From Nonomuraea turcica (GTDB lineage: Bacteria; Actinomycetota; Actinomycetes; Streptosporangiales; Streptosporangiaceae), in assembly GCF_030718205.1 (NCBI RefSeq), contig NZ_JAUZQF010000001.1, positions 682,001-746,000 on the forward strand: 64,000 nucleotides of DNA, written 5' to 3'. How positions within the stretch are numbered: position 1 is the stretch's first letter; each line of letters opens with the position of its first letter. Made by a program: the position numbers and the translations under genes. Positions 8,518 to 63,902 of this stretch are shown piece by piece. The notes beneath the pieces were generated by a model. That model was not told the DNA's origin. It saw nothing but the letters and a program-made list of their open reading frames with translations, and made no database searches.

Positions 8518-8809
8518 ACTCACGCTCCAGCAGTTGCTCGACCACGGTCTCACGCTCCGCCAACTGGAGCACTGGGTAGCCCGCGACCTCCTCCGTCCCA
8601 TCACCTTCGGGCACGGCGTACCCCGCCAGTGGCCGCAGGAAGAGCTGCGAGTCGCGGACCTGATGCGGCGGCTCGTCACAGCCGGATTCACCGCCGAAGC
8701 CGCCGCCCGCGCGGCACGCGCTCATCTGGCCGGGCGACCCCTAGTACCACTCGTTCCAGGTGTGGTCCTCGCCATCGACACCGACCTCCTCACCCGGGAG
8801 GAAACATGA
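8510..8809 (+). CDS. MerR-like helix-turn-helix protein
   Basis: 99 aa. The order TLQQLLDHGLTLRQLEHWVARDLLRP, GVPRQWPQEELRVADLMRRLVTAGFT fits a winged MerR-type DNA-binding domain (helix-turn-helix plus wing) with a short C-terminus. No effector domain. It overlaps the upstream gene by eight bases and ends in a GGAGG followed by the DpdA-like ATG, so it could regulate that gene; this is inference. Confidence 0.62.
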   Translation: MSELTLQQLLDHGLTLRQLEHWVARDLLRPITFGHGVPRQWPQEELRVADLMRRLVTAGFTAEAAARAARAHLAGRPLVPLVPGVVLAIDTDLLTREET

Positions 8810-26858: not shown

Positions 26859-27857
26859 GTGACCGACGTCCTCCCCGCCCTCATCGAAGACCACCTACCG
26901 GCTCTCCCCATCGCCCGGCCCGACGACCGCAACCCCTATCGGGCCTACATCGACAGCCTCCCGCGCGAAGAGTCCAAGCGCACCATGGCCGGCTGCCTCC
27001 GCCGCCTCGCCGACATCATGGACTACGACCCGAACCGTCCCGAAGACGTGCCCTGGGAGCATCTGCGCTACGAGTACACCACCCGCATTCGCGCGATCCT
27101 CGCCGAGCAGACCACCACCCGCAACGGCGAAACCGTCCCCTGGTCACCCTCATCCATCAACAAGCACCTGTCCGCCCTCCGCGGCGTCCTCAAAGCCGCC
27201 TGGCGACTCGGCCTCATCCCCACCGACGACTATCACCGCGCCATCGACATCCCCGGCGACAAAGGCACCCGCCTCCCCGCCGGCCGCAGCATCGCCCACG
27301 GCGAACTGGCCGCCATGCTCGCCGCCTGCCCCGGCGACACCCTGATCGGGATCCGCAACGCCGCCATCATCGCCACCCTCGCCGCCACCGGCGCCCGTCG
27401 CGCCGAGCTCGCCGCCGCCCGCCGTGAGCACTACGACCCCGGCCAGCGCTCCCTGCGCATCATCGGCAAGGGCAACAAGCAGCGCGAGGTCTACCTCAGC
27501 GAGGATGCCGCCGTCTATCTCGGCCGCTGGCTCGCCAAGCACGACGCCACCACCGGGCCGCTGTTCTGCCCGGTCAACCGGTGGGCGACTATCGTCCGAC
27601 GCCACCTCACCGACCACTCCATCGCCGAAGTCATCAACACCGCCCGGCAGGACGCAGGCCTGCCCCGGCTGACCGCCCACGACTTCCGCCGGACCTTCAT
27701 CGGCGAACTCCTCGACGCTGGCGTCGACCTCGCCACCACTCAGGCGCTCGTCGGCCACTCCTCGCCGAGCACCACCGGCCGGTACGACCGCAGACCCGCC
27801 GCCGCGCGTAAGGCCGCCGCCGAACTGATCCGCATGCCGCGCCCCGAAGACCTATAG
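26859..27857 (+). CDS. int: Tyrosine site-specific recombinase (integrase)
   Basis: 332 aa. N-terminal core-binding domain about 20-110 (NPYRAYIDSLPREESKRTM, INKHLSALRGVLKAAWRLG). Catalytic domain: first Arg in GARRAEL (about 177), beta-strand Lys in GKGNKQREVYL (about 199), H-x-x-R in HDFRRTF (about 275-278), His in GHSSPSTTGRYDRR with the nucleophile Tyr (about 311). The set is complete, so the enzyme should be active. It should integrate or excise the element. Its position between packaging and portal genes is unusual. Confidence 0.9.
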   Translation: MTDVLPALIEDHLPALPIARPDDRNPYRAYIDSLPREESKRTMAGCLRRLADIMDYDPNRPEDVPWEHLRYEYTTRIRAILAEQTTTRNGETVPWSPSSINKHLSALRGVLKAAWRLGLIPTDDYHRAIDIPGDKGTRLPAGRSIAHGELAAMLAACPGDTLIGIRNAAIIATLAATGARRAELAAARREHYDPGQRSLRIIGKGNKQREVYLSEDAAVYLGRWLAKHDATTGPLFCPVNRWATIVRRHLTDHSIAEVINTARQDAGLPRLTAHDFRRTFIGELLDAGVDLATTQALVGHSSPSTTGRYDRRPAAARKAAAELIRMPRPEDL

Positions 27858-37141: not shown

Positions 37142-37560
37142 TGATCATCGTTCAGCCTCCGCGTGCCCTCCGGGTCGAGATGGCCCGCTGGGCTGTGCAG
37201 CAGACCCCGAAGGTGCGCACCTGCTCCACCACGGAGTTCGCGGTGCCGGCGCACCTGTTCACACACATCCCCGAGGAGGTCCTGGCCGGGTCTGTCGTGG
37301 ACGGCCAGCGGTATATCAGCCCCGACCCCCAACCGGAGCCCGCCGCAGTCGTTGCGCCGGGCCCGGCAGACCCCCCGCAGGAAACCCTTCATACAGCGCC
37401 CGACAACCCGCACACGGCCCACACAACGCCGCTCACCACCACGCCAGACACCACCACGCCAGACTCCGCGCCGTACCCGTGCGGAGCCTGCCCCCGCGAG
37501 TTCACCACCCAGCGCGGCCGAGACATGCACCGCCGCCAGGCCCACCCGGAGGTGGACTAG
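37135..37560 (+). CDS. Hypothetical protein ending in a C2H2 zinc finger
   Basis: 141 aa. The N-terminal 60 residues are compact (PRALRVEMARWAVQQTPKVRT); a Thr/Pro-rich linker (65-112) follows; the tail PCGACPREFTTQRGRDMHRRQAH is a C-x2-C-x12-H-x4-H zinc finger of the classical type. ATG 37135 overlaps the previous stop; the stop shares a base with the next GTG. Its place in the head operon makes a virion role likely; the finger might bind DNA. Confidence 0.6.
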   Translation: MLMIIVQPPRALRVEMARWAVQQTPKVRTCSTTEFAVPAHLFTHIPEEVLAGSVVDGQRYISPDPQPEPAAVVAPGPADPPQETLHTAPDNPHTAHTTPLTTTPDTTTPDSAPYPCGACPREFTTQRGRDMHRRQAHPEVD

Positions 37561-40487: not shown

Positions 40488-42838
40488 TGTCAAGTTGCTG
40501 CGGGCAGGGCCCGGTCATCATCAGCGGCGCCCCAGCCCCGCCTCGTGTCGACGTCGAGGCAGTTGTCCTCTGCGATGTCCTCGCGGACGGGACGGTCGCC
40601 GGAGTCGCCCTCGTCGAACCCATATACGACACCACCAGCGGTGACCGGATCGGCACGCGCACCGTGGACCCAGTCAGCGGCGCGGCCTACGTGCCGGCCG
40701 GGACGTTGCGGCCGTGCTCGCCGGACGGCTGCAACGCCACCACCACGGCGCAGGTGCTGTGCGACGTCCAGGCGGACGGGACCGCTGTCCAGTTCGTACG
40801 GGCGACCACATACGACTGCGAGGGCGCGCTCCTGGCCACCCTGGACCGCACCCTGGACGGTGCCGCCTACACGGTGACCGGCACCGTCGAGGTCTGCCCC
40901 ACCGTCCCGGACTGCGAGCAACCGACGACCCCGACCGCGACCGTGGGTCTCTGCCTGAGCGATGGCACGCCCATCGCCGTGACCGTGGTCCGGGACTGCG
41001 AAGGCGTCGTGACCTCGGAGGGCTGGATCAACCTCGTCACCGGCGCGTTCTCGGCCGGAGCCCCGCCGGCCGGGACAGTCGCTTGCGGCGATTCCCGCTC
41101 TATCGAAGTCAGCGGGGTGTTCTGCGACCTCGACCCGGACGGCACGGTGCTAGGCCTGGTCCTCATCGAGTACAGCTACGCCGCAGACGGCAGTATCGAC
41201 TCCGTCCGCCTGGTCGACGCCACCACCGGCGCCACCTACACGCCGCAGGGTGAGATCAGCGTGTGCCCGGCCGGGGTCGGGCAGCCCGAGCAGGACGTCG
41301 TCCAGCTCTGCGACGTCGCCGCCGACGGCAGCGTGACGCCGTTCATACGCGACTACCGCCGCGACGAGAACGGGGCCATTGTCGGCCGCAGCGACTACAC
41401 CCTCGACGGTGCCGCCTACGCCCCCACCGGAACCGTTGGGGCGTGCCAGGCCGCGGAGGCCTGCCTGCACTGCGAGACGCTGCCCATGTGCGACGTGGGC
41501 CCGGCCCAACAGGTCACCCTCGACCGCACCCTGACGGACACGGACCCCACGCCGTACTTCCAGGCCTCGGACAACCTGTGGAAGGTGCCCTTGCCCGGCG
41601 GCGGCCAGGCGTTCTGGGACGGCGGGCAGCTGGTGTGGCCGGAGGGCACCGCGCCGCCACCGCAGCAGACCAACCAGCAGCAGCACCACTACATCGCCGC
41701 CCTCATCCAGGGCGCGCCGGTCGTGCCGCCGTGCCCGGCCGCGGACCCGCCGACCGAGGTCACCATCACGGCCACCGCGCACGTGGTAAACGACGGCCCG
41801 ACGTTCGCGTACTCGACCGCCGGCGTGCTGCGCCTGCTCCAGGGCGGGACGCAGCTCGCGGCAAACCCCGTCTTCAACATCCAGGTGGGCGGGGCTCGGG
41901 ACTTCACGCTCACGCACACCGTCACCTATGAACAGTGGCTCTCCGGTGAACTCGCGATCGAGCTGGACCTGGAGACATACACCCAAGGCGGCAAGGGGTG
42001 GACGTCGTCAGCATTCACCCTGGCCGCCACCGCCAACGTCACCAGCTGTTCCACGCCGTTCCTCCGGACGATCTGCCGGGACTGCTCAGGAGAGATCATC
42101 TCCACGACGGACACCACCCTGGACGGCGCCGCCTACACCCCGGTCGGCCCGATCAGCCCGGGCGCGTGCGAGGTCGGCGAGGACAGCCCGGCGTGCGCTG
42201 AGGTGGCCGTGGTGCCGCTGTGCGACGTCCAGGCGGACACCACGGTCCCGTTCCTGCGGCACGTCCAGCACGACTGTTCCGGAGCGGTCACGCGGATATG
42301 GGACACGGACCTGGACGGCGGGGACTTCCTGGCCTCCGGTGAGGTCACCGTGTGCGGGGGCCAGGAGCCCGGGTGCGCGAAGCAGATCATCGAGCGGTGC
42401 GGCTGCGACACCACCGCCACGGGCGAGGTCATCCCCTACACCGAGCTGTGGGCGGTCGACCCGTGCAACGGGGAGGCCCCGGTCCTCCTCGGCGCCTACC
42501 GCGACGGCGACCTGACACAGCCGTACACGCCCGTGAACCCCGGCGAATGCCCGGCCAGCATGGAGGAGCCGGAGCCGCTGCTCACCGGCGTCCGCCGCCT
42601 GACAGGGGATGAGGTCCTGAACCTGTCTGGCCTCCACCCCGGCATCCAGTCCGTCACGCTCACCGTTTTGGCGGGCCAGGGGACGGTGACCACTGACGAC
42701 GGCACGGAGACGATCCCGGCCGGCGTCACGCTCTCCTGGTCGGTGTCCAAAGACTCCGACCAGGCGCTCACCACCTGGAGCGGCGGCAGCCTCGGTACGG
42801 GTTCGGACGTCCTCCTCCACTACACCTACAGGGGTTGA
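40487..42838 (+). CDS. Second Cys-rich Ig-like virion repeat protein
   Basis: 783 aa; ATG overlaps the previous stop (TAATG). The unit LCDVxADGTxxxFxRxYxxDENGxIxGxSDYTLDGAAY recurs, and TPTATVGLCLSDGTPIAV...GWINLVTGAFSAGAPPAG is a close copy of a block in the upstream gene. The C-terminal domain (SLGTGSDVLLHYTYRG) resembles the C-terminus of the 44460 protein. Together these point to duplication within a fibre family. Cysteine-rich, secreted-like composition although virion-borne. Confidence 0.65.
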   Translation: MSSCCGQGPVIISGAPAPPRVDVEAVVLCDVLADGTVAGVALVEPIYDTTSGDRIGTRTVDPVSGAAYVPAGTLRPCSPDGCNATTTAQVLCDVQADGTAVQFVRATTYDCEGALLATLDRTLDGAAYTVTGTVEVCPTVPDCEQPTTPTATVGLCLSDGTPIAVTVVRDCEGVVTSEGWINLVTGAFSAGAPPAGTVACGDSRSIEVSGVFCDLDPDGTVLGLVLIEYSYAADGSIDSVRLVDATTGATYTPQGEISVCPAGVGQPEQDVVQLCDVAADGSVTPFIRDYRRDENGAIVGRSDYTLDGAAYAPTGTVGACQAAEACLHCETLPMCDVGPAQQVTLDRTLTDTDPTPYFQASDNLWKVPLPGGGQAFWDGGQLVWPEGTAPPPQQTNQQQHHYIAALIQGAPVVPPCPAADPPTEVTITATAHVVNDGPTFAYSTAGVLRLLQGGTQLAANPVFNIQVGGARDFTLTHTVTYEQWLSGELAIELDLETYTQGGKGWTSSAFTLAATANVTSCSTPFLRTICRDCSGEIISTTDTTLDGAAYTPVGPISPGACEVGEDSPACAEVAVVPLCDVQADTTVPFLRHVQHDCSGAVTRIWDTDLDGGDFLASGEVTVCGGQEPGCAKQIIERCGCDTTATGEVIPYTELWAVDPCNGEAPVLLGAYRDGDLTQPYTPVNPGECPASMEEPEPLLTGVRRLTGDEVLNLSGLHPGIQSVTLTVLAGQGTVTTDDGTETIPAGVTLSWSVSKDSDQALTTWSGGSLGTGSDVLLHYTYRG

Positions 42839-45885: not shown

Positions 45886-46449
45886 TACTCCAGTGACACT
45901 TCGCGATCATCGGTGGAATCTGCGCTGGTAGTGGCAGCGTGTGGCGCTCACTTGATCGGCGTGAGCGCCACACCGAACGCTAAGTGTTGCGGTACAGGTT
46001 CCAGCCAACTCCGGGCGACAGCGACTTCCGACAGTAGTAATCCCTCCAGGGGTACATGGCCGTGTAAAGCGCATCTGCCGCATTGCATTTCTTCCAGGTG
46101 GCGTAGCCGCCGCGTACAAGGACATCTGCGCTGGCCGGAGCTGAACTGAGCAACAGCGTCATGCAAGTCGCTGCTGCCACTGTAGCCACCGTCAAGAATC
46201 GTCTCACGAAACACCCCTCTGGGCCGCGCAGTTTTAACTGTCACACCCTGCGCGGCGAATCTTTCACGGTGGGCAGTATGGGTCGGCTTCGGCACCCGGC
46301 CGCCACGCTTACGGCCGCCGGGAATGGATCACGTACCGCAGCTTAGGGAGCAGCGGTATAGGCGCGGTATGTCGCTGGTATGCGGTGTGGGCCATCACTT
46401 CCACTGCCAGCGTAGATTCCACCGATGATCGCGAAGTGTCACTGGAGTA
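45886..46449. mobile_element. 564-bp inverted-repeat mini-element with a secreted-protein gene
   Basis: Left arm 45886-45934 and right arm 46401-46449 are inverted copies matching at 47 of 49 positions. The unit sits between the surface-protein run and the glycosyltransferase and carries one gene, on the - strand. A third, shorter copy of the end (26 bp, exact) lies at 46714-46739. No transposase is inside, so it resembles a MITE or an IS-derived cassette. Confidence 0.65.
45980..46207 (-). CDS. Small secreted protein
   Basis: 75 aa, GTG start after GAGGGG. Signal peptide: MRRF, hydrophobic core LTVATVAAATCMTLLLSS, cleavage after APASA (about 27). The mature part (about 48 aa) has two cysteines (KKC, YYC) that could bond, and several aromatic residues. 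It is embedded in the inverted-repeat element and faces against the late operon, so it is likely expressed from the lysogen. Confidence 0.7.
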   Translation of the reverse strand: MRRFLTVATVAAATCMTLLLSSAPASADVLVRGGYATWKKCNAADALYTAMYPWRDYYCRKSLSPGVGWNLYRNT

Positions 46450-46533
46450 CTACTGAGTGCACCCTTCGTTAGAGCATGCCTAACTAATGGGGCCGTAGCC
46501 AGCGAGACGGGTGAAACCCGGTGCCGGGACCAT

Positions 46534-46754
46534 CAGGCTTCGGCAGGCTTGCTCCCGAGCGGCCTGGCGATCTGGGCCATCATCTCGTTGAAGATGACCA
46601 TCCAGCCGTCAGGGTCTACGCTGTGGCTCGCGGCTACCGCACGATCTTTGGTTGTCTTCACAAACTCCGAATGATCACGTGGTGGCCGTCGCCATGTGAC
46701 CCCAACGCCTCAAGATCGCGAAGTGTCACTGGAGTACTAGGAGAGGTATCCGCA
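46534..46754 (-). pseudogene. IS701-like element 5' remnant and inverted-repeat end
   Basis: The - strand reads VAASHSVDPDGWMVIFNEMMAQIARPLG, which looks like the start of an IS701-family transposase, then stops. The 26-bp end at 46714-46739 precedes it at the distance expected for an IS terminus. The rest of 46208-46754 shows no gene. Confidence 0.35.
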
Positions 46755-48128
46755 TTGGGCATGCGCATCCTGGCGCTCATGCCGAGCTATGAGCAGCACG
46801 AGCACCTGCGGGCTATGGCCGCGGCCGGGCATGAGGTGCACGTCGTCACCACCGTCCGCAGGCGTGACAGCCCGCGCCAGGTGGACGGCGTCCGGGTGTG
46901 GCCGCTCGGCTACTGGTGGAGGGCTATGAAGGCGGCCCGCCCGGATGTCCTCGTCACGCATGCTGGTGATCGGCAGGCAGAGCGGCTCGCGGCACGCATG
47001 AGGGGCGTTCCGCGTCTGGTGCTGGGCCAGCCCGACGCGGACGTGGGCGAGTTCGAAGAGGCCTGCATCCGGCTGCTGCCCGCGCGCCGCCAGGCCGAGG
47101 CCCGCACCCCTGTCCCAGGCGATCCCCTCGCCGGCGAGCGGACCAAGGTGGTGGCGTGGATCCACTACGGCGTGCCGTACCGGCGTGCCGGGTCGGAGAC
47201 GATGCTTCAGACGATGATGCGCGCGCTCAAGGACGCCGGCATGGGTGTGCTGGTGGTGTGCTCGTCGATGCCGGAGGCGCCGCCGTCGTGGGACGTGGAC
47301 GGCGTCCCCTACATGCACCTGGGGCCGCACGCCGCCGAGCTGCTGGCCCGGGCCATGCGGCCGGACGTGATGGTCACGCACCACAACTACGCGGCGCGCG
47401 CTATCACTCTCGCCAAGGAAGTCGGGGCGCGGTCGGTGCTGCTGATGCACTCCGACCACGACTTCTCTGCCCGCTCCCTGTGGGCCGGCCCGGACCTGGT
47501 CGTCTACAACACGCATTGGGTACGGGCCTCTCTCGCCGCCCGCTATCTGGAAGTCGACCGTACTGCGTCGCTCGTGGTGCATCCCCCGGTGGGGCCTGAC
47601 GAGCACCGCGCTCCGGTGACAGGGGATCGGGTGACGCTCGTCAATACATCAGGAGACAAAGGCGTCTACACGTGGCGGGGCGCCGCCCGCATGCTGCCGG
47701 AGTTGCCGTTCCTCGGCGTGACCGGCGCGCACGGTCTACAGGTGACGGCGCCGGTTCTGCCGAACATGCACGTGATACCGCAGACCTCGGACATGCGCGG
47801 CGACGTGTGGGCCCGCACCAGGGTCCTGCTCATGCCGAGCATCTACGAGTCGTACGGCATGGCCGCAGTGGAAGCGCTGGCGTCTGGTTTGCCGGTGATC
47901 GCGCACCCAACGGCTGGCCTGCGCGAGGCGCTTGGCGACGCCGCTGTGTTCATCGACCGCGACGACACCAAGGCGTGGGTCGCAGCCATCCGCGAGCTGT
48001 ACCCCGCCGGGCCCCGCCGTGCCGCCGCTGTCAGCGCAGCGCTGGCCCGCAGCGCGTTCCTCACCGACCAGGCGCACACCGAACTGAAAGCGTGGGCCGA
48101 GGCCGTCCAACATCTCGCCGGCCGGTAG
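46755..48128 (+). CDS. Family-4-type glycosyltransferase
   Basis: 457 aa from TTG 46755 (ATG 46761 is the alternative), with AGGAGAGG upstream. GT-B fold: MRILALMPSYEQHEHLRAMAAAGHEVHVVTT at the N-terminus and the nucleotide-sugar site MPSIYESYGMAAVEALASGLPVIAHPTAGLREALGDAAVFID (E-x7-E motif) at the C-terminus. It probably transfers sugars from a nucleotide donor. Located between virion surface genes and the tail tube, it may glycosylate the Ig-like or collagen-like proteins. Confidence 0.82.
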   Translation: MGMRILALMPSYEQHEHLRAMAAAGHEVHVVTTVRRRDSPRQVDGVRVWPLGYWWRAMKAARPDVLVTHAGDRQAERLAARMRGVPRLVLGQPDADVGEFEEACIRLLPARRQAEARTPVPGDPLAGERTKVVAWIHYGVPYRRAGSETMLQTMMRALKDAGMGVLVVCSSMPEAPPSWDVDGVPYMHLGPHAAELLARAMRPDVMVTHHNYAARAITLAKEVGARSVLLMHSDHDFSARSLWAGPDLVVYNTHWVRASLAARYLEVDRTASLVVHPPVGPDEHRAPVTGDRVTLVNTSGDKGVYTWRGAARMLPELPFLGVTGAHGLQVTAPVLPNMHVIPQTSDMRGDVWARTRVLLMPSIYESYGMAAVEALASGLPVIAHPTAGLREALGDAAVFIDRDDTKAWVAAIRELYPAGPRRAAAVSAALARSAFLTDQAHTELKAWAEAVQHLAGR

Positions 48129-48948: not shown

Positions 48949-49656
48949 GTGGCTGCCGACCTGGTAGTGCCGGTGCGGGAGGGAGCCCACAACCAGCAGT
49001 TGCGGTACGCGCTGCGTTCGTGGGCGGCGAACCTTCCGCACCGGCACGTGTGGATCGTCGGATATCGGCCGTGGTGGGCGGCCGGCGCCCGGCACATCCC
49101 GACGTCTCAGCGGGGCAACTCCCGGTACGTCAACACCACCATCGCGATGCGCGCGGCGTGCGAGCACCCGGAGGTGTCGGACCCGTTCATCTGGGCGAAC
49201 GACGACATGTTCGTCATGCGGGCGCAGCCGTCGCCGTTCCCGGTGTTCCACCGGGGCCCGGTGCGTGAGCTTGAGGCGCACTTCGGGCCGCGGTCGACCG
49301 TGTACCTGGCGGCGATGCGGGAGACGCGCGCCTTCCTCGTGGGGCTCGGCTACGAGGACCCGATCTCCTACGAGCTGCACGTACCGCTGCCCGTGGAGAA
49401 GGCGGCCATGGTGAAGGCCCTGGAGGTCGGCCGTGGTCATGACGCGCACAAGCGCACCGTGTACGGGATGCTGGCCGGGATCGGCGGCACGCAGATGGCA
49501 GACGTCAAGGTGTCGCGCCGCGGGCCGCAGTTCGATGCCAGGTCGCCGTTCCTGTCGACGATGCCGGACAGCTTCGCTCACGGGCAGGTCGGCAAGTTCA
49601 TTCGGGCCGCGTTCCCGGGGCGGTGCCCGTATGAGCAGGCGCGGAGGGGGCGCTGA
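48949..49656 (+). CDS. Stealth/GT-like sugar transferase
   Basis: 235 aa. DLVVPVREGAHNQQLRYALRSWAANLPHRHVWIVGYRPWW, then SDPFIWANDDMFVM resembles the core of Stealth-type capsular polysaccharide phosphotransferases and related actinophage glycosyltransferases; NDDMF is the acidic metal/nucleotide site. The tail has a helical substrate region. Together with the GT at 46755 it suggests virion or host-surface glycosylation. Confidence 0.62.
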   Translation: MAADLVVPVREGAHNQQLRYALRSWAANLPHRHVWIVGYRPWWAAGARHIPTSQRGNSRYVNTTIAMRAACEHPEVSDPFIWANDDMFVMRAQPSPFPVFHRGPVRELEAHFGPRSTVYLAAMRETRAFLVGLGYEDPISYELHVPLPVEKAAMVKALEVGRGHDAHKRTVYGMLAGIGGTQMADVKVSRRGPQFDARSPFLSTMPDSFAHGQVGKFIRAAFPGRCPYEQARRGR

Positions 49657-50468: not shown

Positions 50469-51040
50469 GAGCACTCGGCTTGCACGACGTCGCCGCAGCC
50501 GTCCTGGCGTGCGTGTGCGAGGCGCTCGATCGCACGGCGGCCGAAGTGGAGGGCCAGCCGGGTTGCCCGTGCCGCGCCTGCGTGGTGGCCGGCGCTCCGG
50601 CGTTCGACCAGTGCGAGGACCCGTGCTCGGGCGAGCCCGGCGGCCAGCTCACCGTGAACGTGGAGCGAGTCTGGCCATCGTCGTCCTTCCCTGAGGAGGA
50701 CCGTGACGTACGCGGCGTCAAGGGATGCGCCCCGGTGCCGACGCTCGCCGCCGAACTCGTGATCACGTTGCTGCGGTGTGCCCCGATGCAGGATGAGGGC
50801 GGCTGCCCTCCCTCGTGCGAGGAGTTGGAGGCCGCCGCGCGGATCGTGCACGTCGACGCCGTCACCATCCTGAGCGCGCTGCAATGCTGCCTGCCCACCA
50901 CCGCCGGCCGGCGCGGCCGACGGTATGTGATGGGCCGCACCAGGATCCTCACCCCGGAGGGCGGCTGCATGGGCGTCGAGGCCCGTGTCACCGTGGCGCT
51001 GCCTGGCATCTGCTGCCCGGACGGCGAGGTGTCGCCGTGA
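50459..51040 (+). CDS. Head-tail joining protein
   Basis: 193 aa, from ATG 50459. N-terminal helix (AAVLACVCEALDRTAAEVEG), then CPCRACVVAG, ELVITLLRCAPMQDEGGCPPSCEELEAAARIVHVDAV and a beta-strand C-terminus (ARVTVALPGICC). Matches the small neck proteins encoded between connector and HK97-gp10-like genes. Ten cysteines. Confidence 0.6.
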   Translation: MAIGALGLHDVAAAVLACVCEALDRTAAEVEGQPGCPCRACVVAGAPAFDQCEDPCSGEPGGQLTVNVERVWPSSSFPEEDRDVRGVKGCAPVPTLAAELVITLLRCAPMQDEGGCPPSCEELEAAARIVHVDAVTILSALQCCLPTTAGRRGRRYVMGRTRILTPEGGCMGVEARVTVALPGICCPDGEVSP

Positions 51041-51378
51041 GCGTACGGGTGAACATCGACACCGCGGCGCTCCGCGGCATGGCGTACCGGCCCGGCAGCC
51101 CCCTCGTAACCGGATTGCACCGCAAGGTGCGCCTGGTCGAGACGCGCGCCAAGCAGCTGGCCCCGGTCGACACCGGCCGGCTGCGGTCCTCGATCCACAC
51201 TCAAGGCCCCACTGCAGGGCCGACCGGGGCCCGGTTCGAGGTGGTCGCACCCGTGGCTTATGCGATGTGGGTCCACAAGGGATGGCGTGAGTACCGGCGC
51301 GGCAGCGGCCCCATCGTGCGGGCACGGGCTGGAGCGCGCCCGTTCCTGGCCGAGGCGCTGCGGCAGGTCTTCACCTGA
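51037..51378 (+). CDS. HK97 gp10-like neck/tail completion protein
   Basis: 113 aa. KVRLVETRAKQLAPVDTGRLRSSIHTQ, FEVVAPVAYAMWVHKGW and ARPFLAEALRQV are the hallmarks of HK97 gp10-like proteins, which close the head-tail interface. GTG overlaps the preceding stop. It is the last gene before the inserted IS remnant and RiPP cassette. Confidence 0.84.
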   Translation: MSVRVNIDTAALRGMAYRPGSPLVTGLHRKVRLVETRAKQLAPVDTGRLRSSIHTQGPTAGPTGARFEVVAPVAYAMWVHKGWREYRRGSGPIVRARAGARPFLAEALRQVFT

Positions 51379-51379
51379 C

Positions 51380-51992
51380 CCCCGCAGCCTGGATATGGCG
51401 ATACCAGGCCCGGCCGCCCGTTAACCCGCTCTTGTCCGAGGCCGAGGTGATGATGGTGGCGTCGATGTCGATGACGATCCATCCCCTCAGCCGTTTACCC
51501 GCGACCGTCAGCCAGGGGAAGCCGCTCGGGCGCAGGTGCAGCAGTTGCCAGACGTGTCGTCGTACCCTCGCCCTGGCCTTGGCGCTGCGCGTGAGCATCG
51601 CCTCATCCAGGCCGGCCAGCGTGCGGCGGGTCCGACGGCACGACCCCGAACAGCGCCGCCTGATGGGCTTGCAGCCGCTCGGCTTCCAGCACGCTCCGCG
51701 CGCCGCACACGATCGCCGTGGCCAGGCTGAGGAGCACGTGCGCGCGATCGCGCCAGGTTGTGCTCTGCCCGCCCGGCCATAGCCCGCCGAGCGCCTCCGT
51801 CAGCCCGACCCGGTCGGCGATCTTGTGCAACAGCACCGCGCCCGCATGCCCGACCAGCCCTTTTCCATCAGCGGTGACAGACAACCGCCGGTCCCACCCG
51901 GTACGCTCACTCACCAGAAAGGTGCACCTGCTTCTGCAGCGGATATGGCGTCGACACCCAAATCCTTGCAGGTCAGGGGCACCTTTTCTCAT
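51380..51992 (-). pseudogene. IS1380-family transposase remnant, frameshifted
   Basis: On the - strand one frame reads DRRLSVTADGKGLVGHAGAVLLHKIADRVGLTEALGGLWPG (51992-51603), then a shifted frame continues LRGWIVIDIDATIITSASDKSG (51598-51371), the region with the first catalytic Asp residues. It ends after HIQAAGVR, long before the rest of the DDE domain. It shares family with the remnant at 23871. Confidence 0.7.
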
Positions 51993-52144
51993 GATCTAGA
52001 ACGCAGCTACCGCCTCGGCTGAATACTTGAGGCTAACCCGGCGGCATTGGATCATAGGTGGGTGAGTGCATGATGATCTTAGGCTCGCATACCACGGACA
52101 TACCGCGGACATACCGCCCGTCACTACCCTCGCCAGGGACGGAC

Positions 52145-52290
52145 AGCTGTTGACTGTCCATCAGGAGGTGTTCCGGAAGGAACGCCTTTGCTCGACGCCT
52201 ACGGAAGGGGGTGCCCTGGGCCCGAGGCCGGGTCACGCTGGGCTCGAACGTACTCACGAGCGCCGTGTGATTGGAGTGGGAGATGGGATT
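52145..52290 (+). promoter_or_regulatory. Upstream region of the RiPP cassette
   Basis: The 52000-52292 gap has no convincing gene. It contains TTGACT (52150), a 7-of-8 inverted repeat GGTGTTCC-GGAA-GGAACGCC (52167-52186), and a good SD (GGGAGATGGGA, 52279-) before the precursor ATG. An SD-like AGGAGGTG at 52163 has no matched start. Confidence 0.35.
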
Positions 52291-52292
52291 CC

Positions 52293-52388
52293 ATGGAAAA
52301 GGTAATTGTCGACAATGATCCGCAGGGCACTAGCGCGGAACCGTCCAAGTCGAACAATTCGGCCGACATCGCAATTGCCAGCGAATAG
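52293..52388 (+). CDS. Candidate RiPP precursor peptide
   Basis: 31 aa, too short for usual gene calling. It starts MEKVIVDNDPQGTS, has an acidic, Pro/Ser-rich leader, and ends NSADIAIASE, a short Ala/Ile/Ser core. ATG has a strong SD at a normal distance. Its position 122 bp upstream of the B12-radical SAM gene, and its local low GC, make it the natural substrate candidate. No known core motif was recognised, so the assignment is by context. Confidence 0.5.
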   Translation: MEKVIVDNDPQGTSAEPSKSNNSADIAIASE

Positions 52389-52510
52389 TATCAACTAATT
52401 CTGATATATGCTCGCCTCCGCGCAGGGGGATTGCGACGAGCCGCTATTGCTGCTTTGCGATCCCTCTCGTGCACTTTATATTCCGAGCTGCGGTCGACCA
52501 AGGAGAGGCG

Positions 52511-54394
52511 ATGCGGATTACTCTTGCGTCCATGCCGTGGGCATCGATAGACACGCCATCTCTTGCATTGGGAATTCTCACTTCTCGACTTCAGGAAACA
52601 ATGCCAGAAGTTGAGGTGGACACTCGCTTCGTCAATATCGAGTGCGCCGAGTGGATGGGGCGCATCATACCCGGATCCAACCGTCTGGACTATGACTTCT
52701 TCGCACTGCGGAGTTACTTCAAGGGGTGTGGTGACTGGATCTTCACCTCGGCCCTGTACGGCACGCGCGAGTGGAATATCGAGGGCTTCGCCGAGCAGAT
52801 GAAGGGTAAGATCTCATCCCGGGACTACGATATCTGCATGCGCCTGCATGCCGGCGCTCCAGAGTTCATCGATGCTCAGGCCAAGTCAATTTTGGCTACG
52901 AAACCCGACATGGTCTGCTTCACCTCGACGGTTCAGCAGAACGTAGCTTCCCTGGCATTGGCGCGTCGGCTGAAAGAGATCATTCCAGACGTCCGTTGCG
53001 TCATGGGGGGCGCAAACTGCGACGGGGACCAGGGCGCAGGATTGCACCGCGCTTTCGAACAAATCGACTTCGTTGTGCGAGGTGAGGGGGAGCGAAGCTT
53101 CCCAGATCTCATACGCTGCCTCCTGACTGGCGCGGACCTCTCGGCAATCCCCGGGCTCTGCTGGCGGAAGGGAGACCAGTCGGTGGCTAACCCCATGTCG
53201 GACCGCCTCCTGACGCCTGCAGAGATGCCGACGCCCAACTACGATGCCTATTTTTCGCGCATCGAGACCACCAGCGTATCCTCCTGGTTCGAGCCACGGC
53301 TGGTGCTTGAGTCGGCTCGTGGATGCTGGTGGGGGGAGAAGCATCACTGTACATTCTGCGGACTCAACGGATCAGCCATGACCTTCCGCAGCAAGCCTCC
53401 GGAAGTGTTCACTCGTGAGCTGGAGTACCTGGCGAGACGGCATAAGGTCATGGACTTCTTCGTGGTCGACAATATCCTGGATATGCAGTACCTGAACACT
53501 GCCGTGCGTGAAATTGCGGAAGGAGATCACGACTACCGAATCCACTACGAAATCAAATCGAATATGAAGCTCCATCACCTGAAGCAGCTTCGTGACGCAG
53601 GAATAGTGTCTGTCCAACCGGGAATCGAGAACCTGAACGCGACTGTGCTGCGACTCATGGACAAAGGGGTCAGCGGGGTACAGAATGTTCGACTGCTGCG
53701 GGATGCGGAGAGCACCGGACTCTCTGTTATCTGGAACTATCTGTACGGATTTCCGGGCGAATCTGAAGATCACTACCTCCCCGTCATCGCCCAGCTTCCC
53801 TGCCTGCATCACCTGCAACCACCAGGAGGTGCGTCACGCATTGCGCTGGAGCGATTCAGTCCTTATTTCAACAAGCCTGAACTCGGGTTCTCGGTCCGGC
53901 GGCCTCACCGCCAGTACATGATGATCTACGATCTCCCCGATTCCGACCTCTACGACATCGCCTACCTCTTCGATACACCTGACATGGGAATCGAAGGCGG
54001 CGTGGCCGACTCGCTGATAGAAGCTCTTGCGCTGTGGGAACAACAGCACCAATTTAGCACTCTCGCCCATCAGGACGTTGGTGACGCCATTCTCCTCGCC
54101 AACACCAGGCCAAGTTTTGATTGGCGCCACGTCGAACTCCGAAACCCTGAGGAAATTATCCTCTTCCGCATGCTGGACCAGCCACGCACGGATGCCGCTC
54201 TGTGTTCCGCGCTGGATGACGTCAGCTCCCCCCTGGGCGCCGATGGCAGCACAACGGTCCGCAGGATTCTCGCAGAATGGCGACGGCTCGGCCTGATCTT
54301 CACCGACGATGGCCGCCATGTTCACGTGGCCACCACTGCCGAGAACCAGCAGCTCTGCAGAGTCGGCCGTCGCACGGATAAGGCCGCCTCATGA
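52511..54394 (+). CDS. B12-dependent radical SAM RiPP C-methyltransferase
   Basis: 627 aa from ATG 52511 (AGGAGAGG upstream). N-terminal cobalamin-binding-type domain (about 1-205). The radical SAM cluster is ESARGCWWGEKHHCTFCGLNG with Cys 272, 280 and 283 (C-x7-C-x2-C), the hallmark of the rSAM_ocin_1 RiPP maturation group. Conserved GGE-like (FVVDNILD), NYLYGFPGE and LERFSPYF segments follow. Members methylate unactivated carbons of ribosomal peptides. GC and codon use are lower than the phage genes, so the gene was probably acquired. Confidence 0.85.
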   Translation: MRITLASMPWASIDTPSLALGILTSRLQETMPEVEVDTRFVNIECAEWMGRIIPGSNRLDYDFFALRSYFKGCGDWIFTSALYGTREWNIEGFAEQMKGKISSRDYDICMRLHAGAPEFIDAQAKSILATKPDMVCFTSTVQQNVASLALARRLKEIIPDVRCVMGGANCDGDQGAGLHRAFEQIDFVVRGEGERSFPDLIRCLLTGADLSAIPGLCWRKGDQSVANPMSDRLLTPAEMPTPNYDAYFSRIETTSVSSWFEPRLVLESARGCWWGEKHHCTFCGLNGSAMTFRSKPPEVFTRELEYLARRHKVMDFFVVDNILDMQYLNTAVREIAEGDHDYRIHYEIKSNMKLHHLKQLRDAGIVSVQPGIENLNATVLRLMDKGVSGVQNVRLLRDAESTGLSVIWNYLYGFPGESEDHYLPVIAQLPCLHHLQPPGGASRIALERFSPYFNKPELGFSVRRPHRQYMMIYDLPDSDLYDIAYLFDTPDMGIEGGVADSLIEALALWEQQHQFSTLAHQDVGDAILLANTRPSFDWRHVELRNPEEIILFRMLDQPRTDAALCSALDDVSSPLGADGSTTVRRILAEWRRLGLIFTDDGRHVHVATTAENQQLCRVGRRTDKAAS

Positions 54395-54987
54395 CAGACA
54401 CTCCCACACCGTTGCGAGCAGACTGCACTGACCGGCTGAAGGTCCGACTCCATAATCCTGACCCGTTTCCCGCGGGTGAGCTCTATCGCTCCGGTGTCCG
54501 TACCGTAGAACTTGACCAGCCTGTCGACCTGGTCGCACCCTCACCAGCGGATTGCCGGGGAATGGACATCGTGCGACTCGCAACCGCTCGTGGCATGCGG
54601 GTGATCTGGGAAATCCGCTCGATGCCTCCTTCAATTGGTGCCGATGCGCTGAGTCACCTTCATCCGCCACGCCGAATCCAGGGCCCTGATGGCGCGGAGA
54701 AGATCGCAGCCTGGTGGGAGGAGTTCTACCTCGGGCGCTGTTGCTGGAGACAAGGGCCGGGATTCTTGCAGATACGTGACCGTCGCAGCCGTCGACTGGT
54801 CAAATACACGCTGACCGAACCGGATCTGATAGCCGCTCTGCGCGAGCTCGATCAGGGAAATCACGGAGTTCCTGCCGAAGCCATCGGCCCTCTGATCGAG
54901 GAGGGGCTTGTCCTGGCGATGGGTGAGCTGTTCTGGCTGGCTCCCTATCGCATGGTCCGCTGGCCATTCCCATCGATGACGGTCTGA
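54391..54987 (+). CDS. DUF5825 family RiPP accessory protein
   Basis: 198 aa. GPGFLQIRDRRS, LTEPDLIAALRELDQGNHGVPAEAIGPLIEEGLVLAMGELFWLAPYRMVRWPFP is the DUF5825 signature, a family found next to radical SAM RiPP methyltransferases. It may bring the precursor to the enzyme. ATG overlaps the radical SAM stop (ATGA), so the two are made together. Confidence 0.75.
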   Translation: MTDTPTPLRADCTDRLKVRLHNPDPFPAGELYRSGVRTVELDQPVDLVAPSPADCRGMDIVRLATARGMRVIWEIRSMPPSIGADALSHLHPPRRIQGPDGAEKIAAWWEEFYLGRCCWRQGPGFLQIRDRRSRRLVKYTLTEPDLIAALRELDQGNHGVPAEAIGPLIEEGLVLAMGELFWLAPYRMVRWPFPSMTV

Positions 54988-55001
54988 GTGAGTGCTCCCG
55001 A

Positions 55002-55018
55002 GGCTCGAGCCCGTTTTT
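55002..55018 (+). terminator. Terminator-like palindrome after the RiPP operon
   Basis: GGCTCGAGCC (55002-55011) is followed by CG and five T residues (55014-55018). It lies 15 bp after the DUF5825 stop and over the end of the convergent secreted-protein gene, so it could serve both directions poorly. Stem is short. Confidence 0.45.
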
Positions 55019-55346
55019 AACGGCGTTCGGTCCATGCATAAAACGCGACTTCGCCTATATACATCACACTGCCGCAATTGGCAGTCGACGTGCTTCTCGG
55101 GCTTGTCCAGGATCCGTATCGAGTGTATTCAGCCCAGTATCCTGGGAAACCCGGGAACCATCCCGTACATCTTGCGCCTACGCGATGTTGTCCTGTTCCG
55201 GATGTGCACCGGCCGTGCGCGTATACTCCCGATACCTCAACGCTGCAGCCGCTTGGAATAGCAGCTGCTGGAGGCGCTAATGCAATAACTGCAGCCATGG
55301 TGGCCGCAGCGGCCGATACGCCAGCGAATGTTCTCCGAAGGAGCAT
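55017..55346 (-). CDS. Small secreted Cys-containing protein
   Basis: 109 aa. Signal peptide MLLRRTFAGVSAAAATMAAVIALAPPAAA with cleavage near 29, then an 80-residue mature part with four cysteines (GCSV, GRCT, ARCT, ANCG) for two disulfides. No family recognised. Divergent from the late operon, it could be a lysogenic conversion protein. A GGGGG SD precedes the ATG. Confidence 0.66.
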   Translation of the reverse strand: MLLRRTFAGVSAAAATMAAVIALAPPAAAIPSGCSVEVSGVYAHGRCTSGTGQHRVGARCTGWFPGFPGYWAEYTRYGSWTSPRSTSTANCGSVMYIGEVAFYAWTERR

Positions 55347-55397
55347 GTTACCCCCGTCCTTTCGTTTTCCTTCCCGTCTTGATAGGCAACCATGGGG

Positions 55398-55417
55398 CCG
55401 TCATAATCCCGTCATAA
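55398..55417 (-). promoter_or_regulatory. Tandem TTATGACGG repeats upstream of the secreted-protein gene
   Basis: On the - strand TTATGACGG occurs twice (55417-55409 and 55406-55398), eleven bases apart, i.e. about one helical turn. They lie 52 bp upstream of the secreted-protein start, as an operator or activator site would. Confidence 0.4.
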
Positions 55418-55462
55418 CTGCCGACCCCGCCTGTTATCGGGATGGGCGGACAGGCGCTCCGC

Positions 55463-55524
55463 TAGGCTCTCGGTCGTAGCTGCTGGTTATGGGCCGGGCA
55501 ACCCTTCACCGGCGGAGCTATGCC
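55463..55524 (+). promoter_or_regulatory. Late leader element (copy 3, tail chaperone)
   Basis: TAGGCT (55463-55468), thirteen bases, then GCTGGTTATGGGCCGGGC (55482-55499). GGCA/TGCC arms (55497-55500, 55521-55524) enclose the CGGAG SD. ATG 55525 follows. Confidence 0.58.
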
Positions 55525-55962
55525 ATGGCGCGCAAATCCTTCCAACTCCAGACCGAACCCCACGTGGCCGAGATCGGCGACACCGAGCTGCTGCTGAGGC
55601 CCGAAGTGATGGGCGATGAGTTCCTCGACATGCTCGAAGAACTCCAGGCCACCTACCGAGACCTGGGCGTGGACCTGGGCAACGTGGCCACGCTGAATGC
55701 CGAGCAGCTCAAACCCGCCGTGGCGGCGGTACGACGGTTCCTGGCCGAGTTCATGCTGCCGGAGTCAGCCGAGCTGTTCGCCGGCATGCGGCTGCCGGAT
55801 CGGATCCTGGTGCAGCTGCTGGAGTGGGTGATCGAGATCTACGGCGGTGGGAGCCGCCCTACTGGGTCGTCCTCCGGCTCTGCCACTCCATCGCCGCCTC
55901 CTGGGAGTCGTGGCTCGGCCAGCTCGCGCTCCAAGGCGTCGACCCGCGCGCGTGGCCGCTGA
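55525..55962 (+). CDS. Tail assembly chaperone (gpG-like)
   Basis: 145 aa. FLDMLEELQATYRDLGVDLGNVATLNAEQLKPAVAAVRRFLAEFMLPESAELF and MRLPDRILVQLLEWVIEIYGG are the gpG-like core of actinophage tail chaperones that hold the tape measure before tube growth. After about residue 110 the frame becomes Ser/Pro/Arg-rich, as expected past a slippage point. ATG 55525; preceded by a late leader element. Confidence 0.78.
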   Translation: MARKSFQLQTEPHVAEIGDTELLLRPEVMGDEFLDMLEELQATYRDLGVDLGNVATLNAEQLKPAVAAVRRFLAEFMLPESAELFAGMRLPDRILVQLLEWVIEIYGGGSRPTGSSSGSATPSPPPGSRGSASSRSKASTRARGR

Positions 55963-56192
55963 GGACGATGCTCGCCGCGGCAGAGGCCGCCATGGACCTG
56001 GCCGCGGGCGACGACGCCGAGCGGGAGCGTAACCGCGCCCGCCTCTACGCCCCACCCCCCGCAGGCGGTGCTGTGCGCGGCAGAGGCGGTCCCGCAGCTC
56101 GCGGTATGGCGATGACGGACGTGCAGACGTTGATGGCGCAGATGGCGGCCGAGGACTCGCAGCACGCCCGTGGCCGAAACCCCTCCCGGTAG
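55848..56192 (+). CDS. Tail assembly chaperone gpT extension via -1 frameshift
   Basis: The overlapping -1 frame continues WEPPYWVVLRLCHSIAASWESWLGQLALQGVDPRAWPLRTM, the conserved start of gpT-type extensions. It has no good start of its own, so it should be made as a gpG-T fusion by slippage near GGCGGTGGGAGC (55843-55854). Stop at 56192. Confidence 0.65.
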   Translation, partial: WEPPYWVVLRLCHSIAASWESWLGQLALQGVDPRAWPLRTMLAAAEAAMDLAAGDDAERERNRARLYAPPPAGGAVRGRGGPAARGMAMTDVQTLMAQMAAEDSQHARGRNPSR

Positions 56193-62777: not shown

Positions 62778-63902
62778 TCACTCAGATGGCTCGTCCCTGA
62801 CTGCGAATTCGTCGTAGGTCCGGGGACGGATGGGTGGGAGCGATCGCGGCCGTGCTGGTTCGATCAAGGACGGTTCGATTCCGTCGGGCCAGACGGTGTT
62901 GTCATCGAAAACTACCCGCTTCAGGGAGGCGCCGGTCAGCATGGCACCGCTCAGAGTCGCTCCGCGAAGATCGCTGTAATCGAGGCGGGCGCCACGCAGG
63001 TTCGCGTTACGCAGGTCGGCTCTGCTCAGATCGGTGGCGCGTAGGTCGATGCCCTCGGCAATGATGCCGGTCAGGACGGCGTCCCGTAAATCGGCCTGGT
63101 AGAGGATCGCGTCCGGGAGGATCGCGCCGGCCAGCCGTGCTCCGGTCAGATCCGCACGGGTCAGATCGACTCCGACGAGGGAGGATTCGGTCAGGTCGCT
63201 GAAGTGGAGATCCACATCGTGGAGCCGGGCGGAGGCGAGGTTGGTCTTGGGCAGGACCACCCGGTCCAGACCGAGCACCTGGCCTCTCACTGATTGGCGG
63301 CGGCCGAGGACCGTGAGTGCCGCGTGGATGTCCGGAGCTCGGAGGGAGAGGTTCACCAGATCGTCGGGGGGCGCGGCCGTGTGCTGGGCGTCCTGCGCAT
63401 TTCTGTGAGGACGGCGGGTGCGGGTGCCGATGAATGCGGTGAGGATCTCGCCGATGGTACGGCGGTCGGCTGTGGAAGAGCGTGCGATGCGTTCCAGGGC
63501 GTAGATGCCGCCGAGTCGGACATCCACGCTGGGATCACCCAGGTGGGCGATCGCGGCGGCGAACGATTCGGTGGCCTGGCCGTGGCGGCTGAGCTGGAGT
63601 TGGCGCCAGGTGAGGTAGGCGCCCATTAGAAGCACCAGGCCGCCAACTCCCTGCAGTAGGGCTGTGCGGATGTTGTTCACGGCGGCCGCGTAGTCGGCCG
63701 GCGGTTGCGCCGATCCCAAGTCCCAGGCGAGCAGGTGACGTGGGAGCAGAATGGCGCAGGCCAAGGCGGCGATACCCAGAAGTGCGGTGATGATGAAGGG
63801 AGCAGAGATCCGGTGGCGCCAGGACGCACCGACACGGGCGATCTTGTCCGTTCGGACGGGGTGGCGGGGGAGCGGTGGCGTGCGGTCTTCGATGCGCGTC
63901 AT
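62778..63902 (-). CDS. Pentapeptide-repeat membrane protein
   Basis: 374 aa. Two hydrophobic helices (about 34-53 and 84-103) precede a linker; the C-terminal half has A(D/N)LxxA-type pentapeptide repeats (ADLTGARLAGAILPDAILYQADLRDAVL, ADLRNANLRGARLDYSDLRGATLSGAML), a right-handed beta-helix. The family ranges from gyrase-inhibitor mimics to membrane proteins of unknown role. The 62538-62777 gap shows no gene. Upstream promoter not assigned. Likely host or moron. Confidence 0.72.
   Translation of the reverse strand: MTRIEDRTPPLPRHPVRTDKIARVGASWRHRISAPFIITALLGIAALACAILLPRHLLAWDLGSAQPPADYAAAVNNIRTALLQGVGGLVLLMGAYLTWRQLQLSRHGQATESFAAAIAHLGDPSVDVRLGGIYALERIARSSTADRRTIGEILTAFIGTRTRRPHRNAQDAQHTAAPPDDLVNLSLRAPDIHAALTVLGRRQSVRGQVLGLDRVVLPKTNLASARLHDVDLHFSDLTESSLVGVDLTRADLTGARLAGAILPDAILYQADLRDAVLTGIIAEGIDLRATDLSRADLRNANLRGARLDYSDLRGATLSGAMLTGASLKRVVFDDNTVWPDGIEPSLIEPARPRSLPPIRPRTYDEFAVRDEPSE

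What the first reader, a model, noticed from the sequence alone, without database searches (positions are those of the whole stretch)
52145..55018. B12-radical SAM RiPP cassette inside a phage structural operon
A 31-aa candidate precursor (52293), an rSAM_ocin_1-type C-methyltransferase with the C-x7-C-x2-C cluster, and a DUF5825 partner form a compact cassette with its own end-of-operon hairpin. It sits between the neck gene and the tail genes, next to an IS1380 remnant and with lower GC than the phage. RiPP systems of this class are not usually described as phage morons. It could make the lysogen produce a modified peptide, perhaps as competition or signal. What is new here is the location and the very short precursor.
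Basis: partly seen in the sequence, partly recalled or inferred. Interest (0 to 1): 0.93.

Follow-up and report, generated by a model that had tools for sequence, protein, structure and literature searches.

The report
Methylated-peptide cassette inside a bacterial virus
A dormant virus in an actinomycete chromosome carries, wedged between its head and tail genes, a three-gene kit related to the clavusporin pathway that is predicted to make a short peptide and add methyl groups to it, so the virus likely gives its bacterial host a molecule it could not otherwise make, although what that molecule does is not known.

Summary
The cassette is real: a 31-aa precursor ORF (52293-52388), a TIGR03975 B12-radical SAM enzyme (52511-54394) and DUF5825 (54391-54987). 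It sits in a 100,273-bp prophage with a 62-bp att repeat at tRNA-Thr, syntenic with Streptomyces phage TurkishDelight. The enzyme pair is that of the clavusporin pathway. The precursor's leader is conserved: 63 of 80 relatives have such an ORF upstream (controls 0), so a very short precursor is the family norm. Unusual are place and core. The neck/tail-chaperone junction is 76-235 bp in 8 of 13 distinct related phages, 620-4201 bp in 5; here it is 4.1 kb. Four IMG/VR scans found no relative; 50,697 phage records hold no DUF5825 and only distant radical SAM matches; in 392 Streptomyces-like genomes none lies with this phage's tail gene. The core (NSADIAIASE) is far less hydrophobic than those of 56 distinct relatives; the protease and exporter genes of chromosomal operons are absent. 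Best reading: a minimal clavusporin-type cassette carried as cargo, likely making a C-methylated peptide for the lysogen. Expression, product and role are untested; decay is the main rival. Class: new variant of a known kind.

The parts
52293..52388 (+). 31-aa precursor ORF, leader MEKVIVDNDPQ, core GTSAEPSKSNNSADIAIASE
   Evidence: strict leader motif shared by upstream ORFs of 63 of 80 related loci, controls 0; unique in 123.5 kb; alignment with 15 chosen relatives
52511..54394 (+). B12-dependent radical SAM enzyme, rSAM_ocin_1 subfamily, predicted C-methyltransferase (ORF open from GTG 52469)
   Evidence: TIGR03975 603.9 bits; Radical_SAM and B12-binding; C-x7-C-x2-C also in 83 of 83 relatives; predicted fold nearest TokK, OxsB, TsrM and CysS
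54391..54987 (+). DUF5825 partner protein, start overlaps the enzyme's stop
   Evidence: PF19142 173 bits; downstream of the enzyme in 82 of 83 relatives; keeps 21 of 21 columns invariant in 16 relatives; no PDB fold match at E <= 0.001
51379..55488 (.). 4.1-kb low-GC island between the neck gene and the tail assembly chaperone
   Evidence: GC 0.600 against 0.70-0.72; the junction is 76-235 bp in 8 of 13 distinct related phages and 620-4201 bp in 5
51603..51992 (-). remnant of an IS1380-type transposase, N-terminal part
   Evidence: NF033539 29.9 bits, cut-off 180; DDE_Tnp_1_4 20.6 bits, cut-off 34.7
55017..55346 (-). ORF of 109 aa with a signal-peptide-like N terminus, antisense to the phage genes, part of the island
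   Evidence: ORF; no Pfam match; signal peptide judged by eye
51037..51378 (+). neck / tail completion gene, left border of the island; not matched by tblastn to the neck genes of related phages
   Evidence: phrog_5 45.5 bits; HK97-gp10_like 20.2 bits, just under cut-off 21.4; best tblastn E 1.1 in 6 related loci
55489..55962 (+). tail assembly chaperone gene, right border of the island (likely start ATG 55525)
   Evidence: phrog_12617 145.5 bits, function unknown there; tblastn to TurkishDelight gp26, annotated tail assembly chaperone

Best explanation
The genes at 52293-54987 are a minimal cassette of the clavusporin type (31-aa precursor, B12-radical SAM enzyme, DUF5825 partner) that sits as an insertion between the neck and tail genes of a ~100-kb prophage and likely lets the lysogen make a C-methylated peptide. 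Shown by calls or sequence: intact frames, family membership of both enzymes, the conserved precursor leader, the prophage borders, and an insertion point that is short or holds other DNA in related phages. Inferred: the conserved leader MEKVIVDNDPQ would dock on the enzyme pair; the radical SAM enzyme, with methylcobalamin and SAM, would methylate side chains in the core, most likely Ile26 and Ile28 of the alternating stretch ADIAIASE; a host peptidase would remove the leader, since the cassette has none; the product would act in or on the lysogen as lysogenic conversion rather than in the virion. The core lacks the hydrophobic V/I-rich stretch of the 56 distinct relatives compared, so I expect a changed role, not simply a clavusporin-like surfactant. 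What that role is remains open.
For: TIGR03975 603.9 bits and PF19142 173 bits. DUF5825 follows the enzyme in 82 of 83 relatives, the one miss being at a contig end. Leader motif in 63 of 80 loci, controls 0. A homologous pair makes C-methylations in clavusporin biosynthesis (PMC12257519, passages). Predicted fold closest to the cobalamin radical SAM enzymes TokK, OxsB, TsrM and CysS. The window keeps 153 of 163 enzyme columns that are invariant in 17 relatives and 21 of 21 DUF5825 columns invariant in 16. Prophage: 62-bp repeat at G000:C1:672475 and 772686, the first in tRNA-Thr; terminase, helicase, portal, capsid, tail; synteny with TurkishDelight. Cargo site: 5 of 13 distinct related phages hold 620-4201 bp at the same junction, four of them with an ORF of 240 aa or more. 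The prophage carries the host's only DUF5825 match, and a same-species genome has neither that nor the phage portal and major tail genes.
Against: No expression or product data. The core is outside the range of the 56 distinct relatives: best 10-residue Kyte-Doolittle mean 0.23 against 1.14-2.86; 2 V/I/L/F against 5-9. A prolyl oligopeptidase lies in the fetched flanks of 64 of 80 relatives and an MFS gene in 68 of 80; neither matches anywhere in the window. Left out in turn, the window deviates at 10 otherwise invariant enzyme columns, second most of 18 rows (range 0-13). Third-position GC 0.687 and 0.641, against at least 0.82 for the enzyme gene in 83 relatives. An IS fragment lies in the same island. 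Single occurrence: no second phage with the cassette was found. No terminator could be assigned; sigma-70-like sites exceed chance (4 found, 1.3 expected) but one of the four lies before the tail chaperone and two inside genes.
Confidence: 0.62

Rival explanations
1. A decaying passenger: the cassette came in with an insertion sequence or by recombination, its core has already degenerated, and it makes nothing of use to phage or host.
For: Core outside the range of 56 relatives; protease and exporter genes not in the window; IS1380 fragment alongside; found once; unusual third-position GC and 10 deviations at otherwise invariant enzyme columns, second most of 18 rows; no assignable terminator.
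Against: All three frames intact; start of the precursor and its leader kept; 153 of 163 and 21 of 21 invariant columns kept; short end branch (0.15) within a clade of full-length enzymes; ORFs of similarly low third-position GC stand at the same junction in two other prophages (L148, L151).
Confidence: 0.2
2. An ordinary clavusporin-like surfactant or morphogen supplied by the phage: the peptide lowers surface tension and helps the host raise aerial hyphae, which spreads the lysogen in spores.
For: Same enzyme pair and leader type; the clavusporin paper's title, seen in a reference list, calls them peptide surfactants that promote bacterial development; a prophage is reported to increase dispersal of a Streptomyces (PMC11302927, passages).
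Against: The core is not hydrophobic (0.23 against 1.14-2.86) and lacks the aromatic end of the nearest chromosomal group; no protease or exporter in the window. In the Samy case conditioned supernatant did not transfer the effect.
Confidence: 0.1
3. The enzymes act on something other than the 31-aa peptide, for instance a host or phage protein, and the short ORF is a relic.
For: Enzymes are well conserved while the core is not.
Against: The leader, the part expected to bind the enzymes, is conserved in the phage copy; no other ORF in 123.5 kb has the strict motif.
Confidence: 0.05

Closest known systems
[quoted passage not shown] not held; known here from citing passages in PMC12257519 and PMC12951456)
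   Same: B12-radical SAM enzyme paired with DUF5825; C-methylation of a ribosomal peptide (predicted here)
   Different: Here the cassette lies in a prophage, lacks a prolyl oligopeptidase (MpcP in clavusporins, PMC12951456) and an exporter, and its core is not hydrophobic
Chromosomal Streptomyces group L014-L021 (precursors such as MEKTVVENDPQIDDPDSALVSVGVSVSF)
   Same: Same leader, same gene order precursor - enzyme - DUF5825, also without a prolyl oligopeptidase match (0 of 8)
   Different: 53-56% identical enzyme; two further conserved ORFs (membrane-like by eye, no Pfam match) and an MFS gene in 8 of 8; V-rich cores
Sublancin 168 genes in Bacillus prophage SPbeta (PMC8270828, passages)
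   Same: RiPP genes carried by a temperate phage and used in lysogenic conversion
   Different: Glycosylated bacteriocin with exporter and immunity genes; unrelated enzymes
Streptomyces phage TurkishDelight NC_073473 (93.6 kb)
   Same: Syntenic head and tail genes, 33-73% identical over the main matches
   Different: 231 bases between neck and tail assembly chaperone genes, no cassette there; neck protein of another type
Streptomyces phage SF3 gp36
   Same: A B12-binding radical SAM gene in a phage of Streptomyces
   Different: 24.7% identity over 53% of the query; beside thymidylate kinase, NUDIX and integrase genes, no DUF5825 in that record

Membership tests
rSAM_ocin_1 / DUF5825 C-methyltransferase pair | TIGR03975 enzyme above curated cut-off | tested here: met
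   603.9 bits, cut-off 281.85
rSAM_ocin_1 / DUF5825 C-methyltransferase pair | C-x7-C-x2-C cluster motif and B12-binding domain | tested here: met
   CWWGEKHHCTFC as in 83 of 83 relatives; PF02310 35 bits, cut-off 32.1
rSAM_ocin_1 / DUF5825 C-methyltransferase pair | DUF5825 directly downstream | tested here: met
   PF19142 173 bits; 82 of 83 relatives
rSAM_ocin_1 / DUF5825 C-methyltransferase pair | short precursor upstream with M-[EQR]-K-x4-[NST]-D-P leader | tested here: met
   window ORF and 63 of 80 loci, controls 0; the motif is mine, derived from these loci
Clavusporin (the product family) | hydrophobic V/I-rich core | tested here: not met
   best 10-residue hydropathy 0.23, 2 V/I/L/F; 56 distinct relatives 1.14-2.86 and 5-9. 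That it is defining rests on the paper's title and recall
Clavusporin (the product family) | prolyl oligopeptidase beside the cassette | tested here: not met
   in the flanks of 64 of 80 relatives, no match in the window; 32 Peptidase_S9 matches in the host genome
Clavusporin (the product family) | C-methylated peptide product | not testable with these tools
   needs mass spectrometry
Phage moron (cargo gene) | inserted between genes that adjoin in related phages | tested here: met
   gap 76-235 bp in 8 of 13 distinct relatives, 620-4201 bp in 5, between tblastn alignment ends
Phage moron (cargo gene) | base composition unlike the phage | tested here: met
   GC 0.600 against 0.70-0.72; third-position GC 0.64-0.69 against 0.87-0.92 for five phage genes
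Phage moron (cargo gene) | own promoter and terminator | tested here: inconclusive
   4 sigma-70-like sites against 1.3 expected, one at 52455-52482 just before the enzyme gene; no terminator at the end; other promoter types not covered
Phage moron (cargo gene) | expressed from the prophage, independent of lytic growth | not testable with these tools
   needs RNA data
Prophage (bounded, with packaging, head and tail genes) | integrase, att repeats, packaging, head and tail genes | tested here: met
   62-bp att repeat and tRNA-Thr; terminase; portal, capsid, tape measure. The attL-side integrase is a weak Pfam match, 19.8 bits under a cut-off of 27.1
Prophage (bounded, with packaging, head and tail genes) | complete lysis module, able to be induced | tested here: inconclusive
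   endolysin match 41.5% over residues 1-166 of 313; TurkishDelight holin not matched, tailspike only in part

The most novel reading that the evidence does not exclude
A temperate phage has taken a bacterial morphogen pathway, kept the leader and the C-methylating enzymes, and rewritten the core into a small hydrophilic methylated peptide, either a phage-made signal between lysogens or a regulator of host development, with host peptidases and exporters doing the rest.
Probability: 0.15. Interest if true: 0.85.

Novelty: new variant of a known kind. Interest (0 to 1): 0.52.

Why it matters
If the cassette works, phages move not only toxins and bacteriocins but also the C-methylating RiPP chemistry that actinomycetes are reported to use for development, and the neck/tail junction of this phage family becomes a place to look for further cargo. 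The phage peptide is also a natural test of how far the core can drift while the enzymes still accept it: the leader is constant and the core is outside the range of the 56 relatives compared.

Tried and rejected
Terminator at the end of the operon: not supported. A frame-shifted hydrophobic core behind the precursor's stop: all three frames read, none shows it. A second precursor elsewhere in the prophage: none with the strict motif. The cassette in other phages: viral-contig scans with the enzyme, the DUF5825 protein and an alignment of each gave none (short degenerate patterns, so distant copies could be missed); 50,697 phage records gave no DUF5825 and three records with distant enzymes, two of SF3 and one faecal. 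Window proteins other than the enzyme pair against loci L003-L093: no match at E <= 1e-5. Cassette beside this phage in 392 genomes of the genus of G056 (Streptomyces-like; my inference from the tree): 15 have the major tail gene at E <= 1e-30, 91 have DUF5825, 2 have both (G545 on different contigs, G604 3.5 Mb apart), none together. Reading of the first tree that the phage enzyme is a long, odd branch (1.73): withdrawn after adding protein-database relatives, where its end branch is 0.15. Whether the 80-82% relatives lie in the same phage: none of the 120 capsid hits listed of 726 reports their contig lengths, which is weak evidence only. DUF5825 as a known fold: no PDB match at E <= 0.001. 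For the junction count I fetched 11 of the 16 places (the five weakest left out) and added L103, L124, L125 and L126; L150 lacks recognisable neck and chaperone genes and L147 repeats L125, leaving 13. L102 and L109 show other genes before the chaperone, but no neck gene, and are not counted. L152 counts as occupied (620 bp) but shows no convincing ORF. The loose leader count (66 of 86) includes the window's own locus and one spurious hit, L006; I use the strict count. The hydropathy used 19 chosen relatives; one search replaces it with all 56 distinct ones found. Paper search mostly returned unrelated uses of 'MPCP'.
Full report
What is there. The window lies at G000:C1:682001-746000 of a 12.66-Mb genome whose name the tools withhold; its relatives and phage make it an actinomycete (inference). 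At 52293-54987 three genes stand in line on the + strand: a 31-aa ORF, a radical SAM gene and a DUF5825 gene, the last starting inside the stop of the second. The enzyme matches TIGR03975 (RiPP maturation radical SAM C-methyltransferase) at 603.9 bits, more than twice the cut-off, and carries the radical SAM and B12-binding domains. The second protein matches PF19142 at 173 bits. A predicted model of the enzyme (mean pLDDT 83.8) is nearest to TokK, OxsB, TsrM and CysS, cobalamin-dependent radical SAM enzymes. DUF5825 gave a confident model (87.4) but no PDB match at E <= 0.001.

Is the precursor real. I took the best 80 of 511 relatives found in genome contigs. The motif M-[EQR]-K-x4-[NST]-D-P at the start of an ORF of 20-70 aa occurs upstream of the enzyme in 63 of 80; two of the 17 misses (L034, L035) have almost no upstream sequence. 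The same test gives 0 hits on the reverse strand, 0 downstream and a mean of 0.0 in 20 rounds of shuffles. The window ORF carries it: MEKVIVDNDPQ, against MEKTVVENDPQ and similar in the nearest chromosomal group. DUF5825 follows the enzyme in 82 of 83 relatives (these 80 and L003-L005), and the miss, L045, is at a contig end. Between precursor and enzyme gene the RNA folds better than shuffles (52389-52465, z -2.54, 4 of 200 as good), a possible leader hairpin; I did not pursue it.

What it is related to. [quoted passage not shown] The clavusporin paper itself is not held; [quoted passage not shown] From memory, its abstract speaks of hydrophobic peptides with methyl groups at unactivated carbons that aid Streptomyces development; I did not read it. 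A prolyl oligopeptidase match lies in the fetched flanks of 64 of 80 chromosomal loci and an MFS match in 68 of 80; a group of eight Streptomyces loci (L014-L021) has no oligopeptidase match but two further conserved ORFs, membrane-like by eye, and an MFS gene. MpcP, a prolyl oligopeptidase, removes the clavusporin leader (PMC12951456, passage). None of these proteins matches anywhere in the window at E <= 0.01, though the host genome has 32 Peptidase_S9 matches.

Where it sits. The neighbours are phage genes: portal, capsid maturation fusion, major capsid, head-tail adaptor, neck, tape measure and minor tail proteins, in the order of Streptomyces phage TurkishDelight. Terminase (19189-20787), helicase and other replication genes lie upstream, and an endolysin match beyond the window's end (41.5% over half the protein; the holin was not matched). 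A 62-bp direct repeat at G000:C1:672475 and 772686 bounds 100,273 bases; the left copy overlaps the 3' part of a tRNA-Thr gene, and an integrase-like gene lies beside it, a weak Pfam match. A genome that the tool calls the same species lacks the portal region, the major tail gene and DUF5825. It has the tRNA flank at 99% identity with a further att-like copy 12.8 kb away, perhaps another element in the same site.

The insertion point. I examined 15 related loci: TurkishDelight, three IMG/VR contigs and 11 of the 16 places. Fourteen show both neck and tail assembly chaperone genes and 13 are distinct. The gap, measured between tblastn alignment ends, is 76-235 bp in 8 of 13 and 620-4201 bp in 5. 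The fillings differ: a 468-aa DUF5122 beta-propeller protein and more (L146), a 240-aa ORF (L145), 313-aa and 285-aa antisense ORFs with third-position GC 0.64 and 0.67 (L148, L151), and in L152 nothing convincing. In the window the gap is 4.1 kb, with the IS1380 fragment, the cassette and an antisense small ORF. The neck gene itself is also not matched by the relatives' neck genes. This makes the junction a recurrent cargo place, and the cassette one of its loads.

How unusual. Four scans of IMG/VR with either protein or an alignment of either gave no relative. Among 50,697 phage records there is no DUF5825 and only distant enzymes: SF3 gp36, 24.7% over 53%, in another gene setting, and a faecal record. 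In 392 genomes of a Streptomyces-like genus 15 hold this phage's major tail gene (E <= 1e-30) and 91 hold DUF5825; two hold both, not together. In the host's family the tail gene is found at E <= 1e-60 in 1 of 341 genomes, this one. Literature searches for DUF5825, clavusporin, TIGR03975, phage plus radical SAM plus RiPP plus moron, phage-encoded biosynthetic genes, and RiPP plus prophage plus radical SAM listed no paper that I could recognise, from title and start of abstract, as reporting such a cassette in a phage; most subscription papers are not in that library. RiPP genes in a prophage are known as such: sublancin in SPbeta (PMC8270828, passages).

Origin. Protein-database relatives named Nonomuraea and Actinomadura are 80-82% identical and form a clade with the phage enzyme (support 100/99), apart from the Streptomyces group at 53-58%. 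I could not fetch their contigs. Of the named capsid relatives among the 120 listed, nearly all are Streptomyces. Capture of the cassette from a host lineage near the present one is the simplest history, but it is inference.

Is it working. For: intact frames; 153 of 163 and 21 of 21 invariant columns kept; a short branch in a clade of full-length enzymes; leader kept. Against: when each of 18 enzymes is left out in turn, the window deviates at 10 otherwise invariant columns, second most after L004 with 13. Above all the core: its best 10-residue hydropathy is 0.23, while 56 distinct relatives lie between 1.14 and 2.86; it has 2 V/I/L/F, they have 5-9. It still alternates (ADIAIASE), and Ile26 and Ile28 align near the V/I positions of relatives (gapped there). 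Third-position GC of enzyme and DUF5825 (0.687, 0.641) is below that of the enzyme gene in all 83 relatives (lowest 0.82) and of five phage genes (0.87-0.92). This composition may be a trait of its own clade, whose DNA I could not see. In actinomycetes such AT-rich DNA is a likely target of Lsr2-type silencing (general knowledge, not tested), which would fit conditional expression.

Verdict. A member of the rSAM_ocin_1/DUF5825 pathway class by the sequence features tested, not a clavusporin in the narrow sense because core and protease differ. It looks like a cargo gene set at a recurrent cargo place in a temperate phage. The chemistry (C-methylation) is inferred from the family; the role is open, with a changed, non-surfactant function most likely, decay next.

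Noticed in passing
window 26859-27857: A second integrase-type gene (phrog_1, 145 bits) lies between terminase and portal, besides the integrase-like gene at the attL end.
   Followed up: no
window 52389-52465: The stretch between precursor stop and enzyme gene folds better than shuffles (z -2.54, 4 of 200 as good); a possible leader or attenuator hairpin.
   Followed up: no
window 55489-55962 and 55824-56192: Tail assembly chaperone and an overlapping ORF in another frame that shares the stretch around LCHSIAASW with related phages; the arrangement suggests programmed frameshifting.
   Followed up: partly
window 37479-42838: Two very large proteins between capsid and tail genes (first one phrog_18824, 866 bits, unknown function); repetitive relatives stand before the major tail gene in L124-L126, and TurkishDelight shows no match to them.
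   Followed up: partly
window 46521-48128 and 48949-49656: Glycosyltransferase and Stealth_CR2-like protein (weak, under cut-off) inside the structural operon, syntenic in TurkishDelight where the first is annotated glycosyltransferase.
   Followed up: no
window 45980-46207 (-), 55017-55346 (-), 62778-63902 (-): Three antisense ORFs between structural genes: two small ones with signal-peptide-like starts (by eye) and a pentapeptide-repeat protein; possible further cargo.
   Followed up: no
window 8629-9834 and 3584-5914: Queuine tRNA-ribosyltransferase (phrog_1279, 322.5 bits) and DNA methyltransferase genes in the early region.
   Followed up: no
L109 (G000:C73): A second, fragmentary copy of the tail module of a related phage in the same host genome, with its minor tail gene matched in several pieces and transposon-like and secreted-protein ORFs upstream.
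   Followed up: partly
G098:C1:483284-498048 (L122, L123): In the same-species genome the tRNA-Thr att stretch occurs twice, 12.8 kb apart, perhaps another element in the same integration site.
   Followed up: no
L104, phage SF3 gp36: A B12-binding radical SAM gene of another kind in a Streptomyces phage, beside thymidylate kinase, NUDIX and integrase genes.
   Followed up: no
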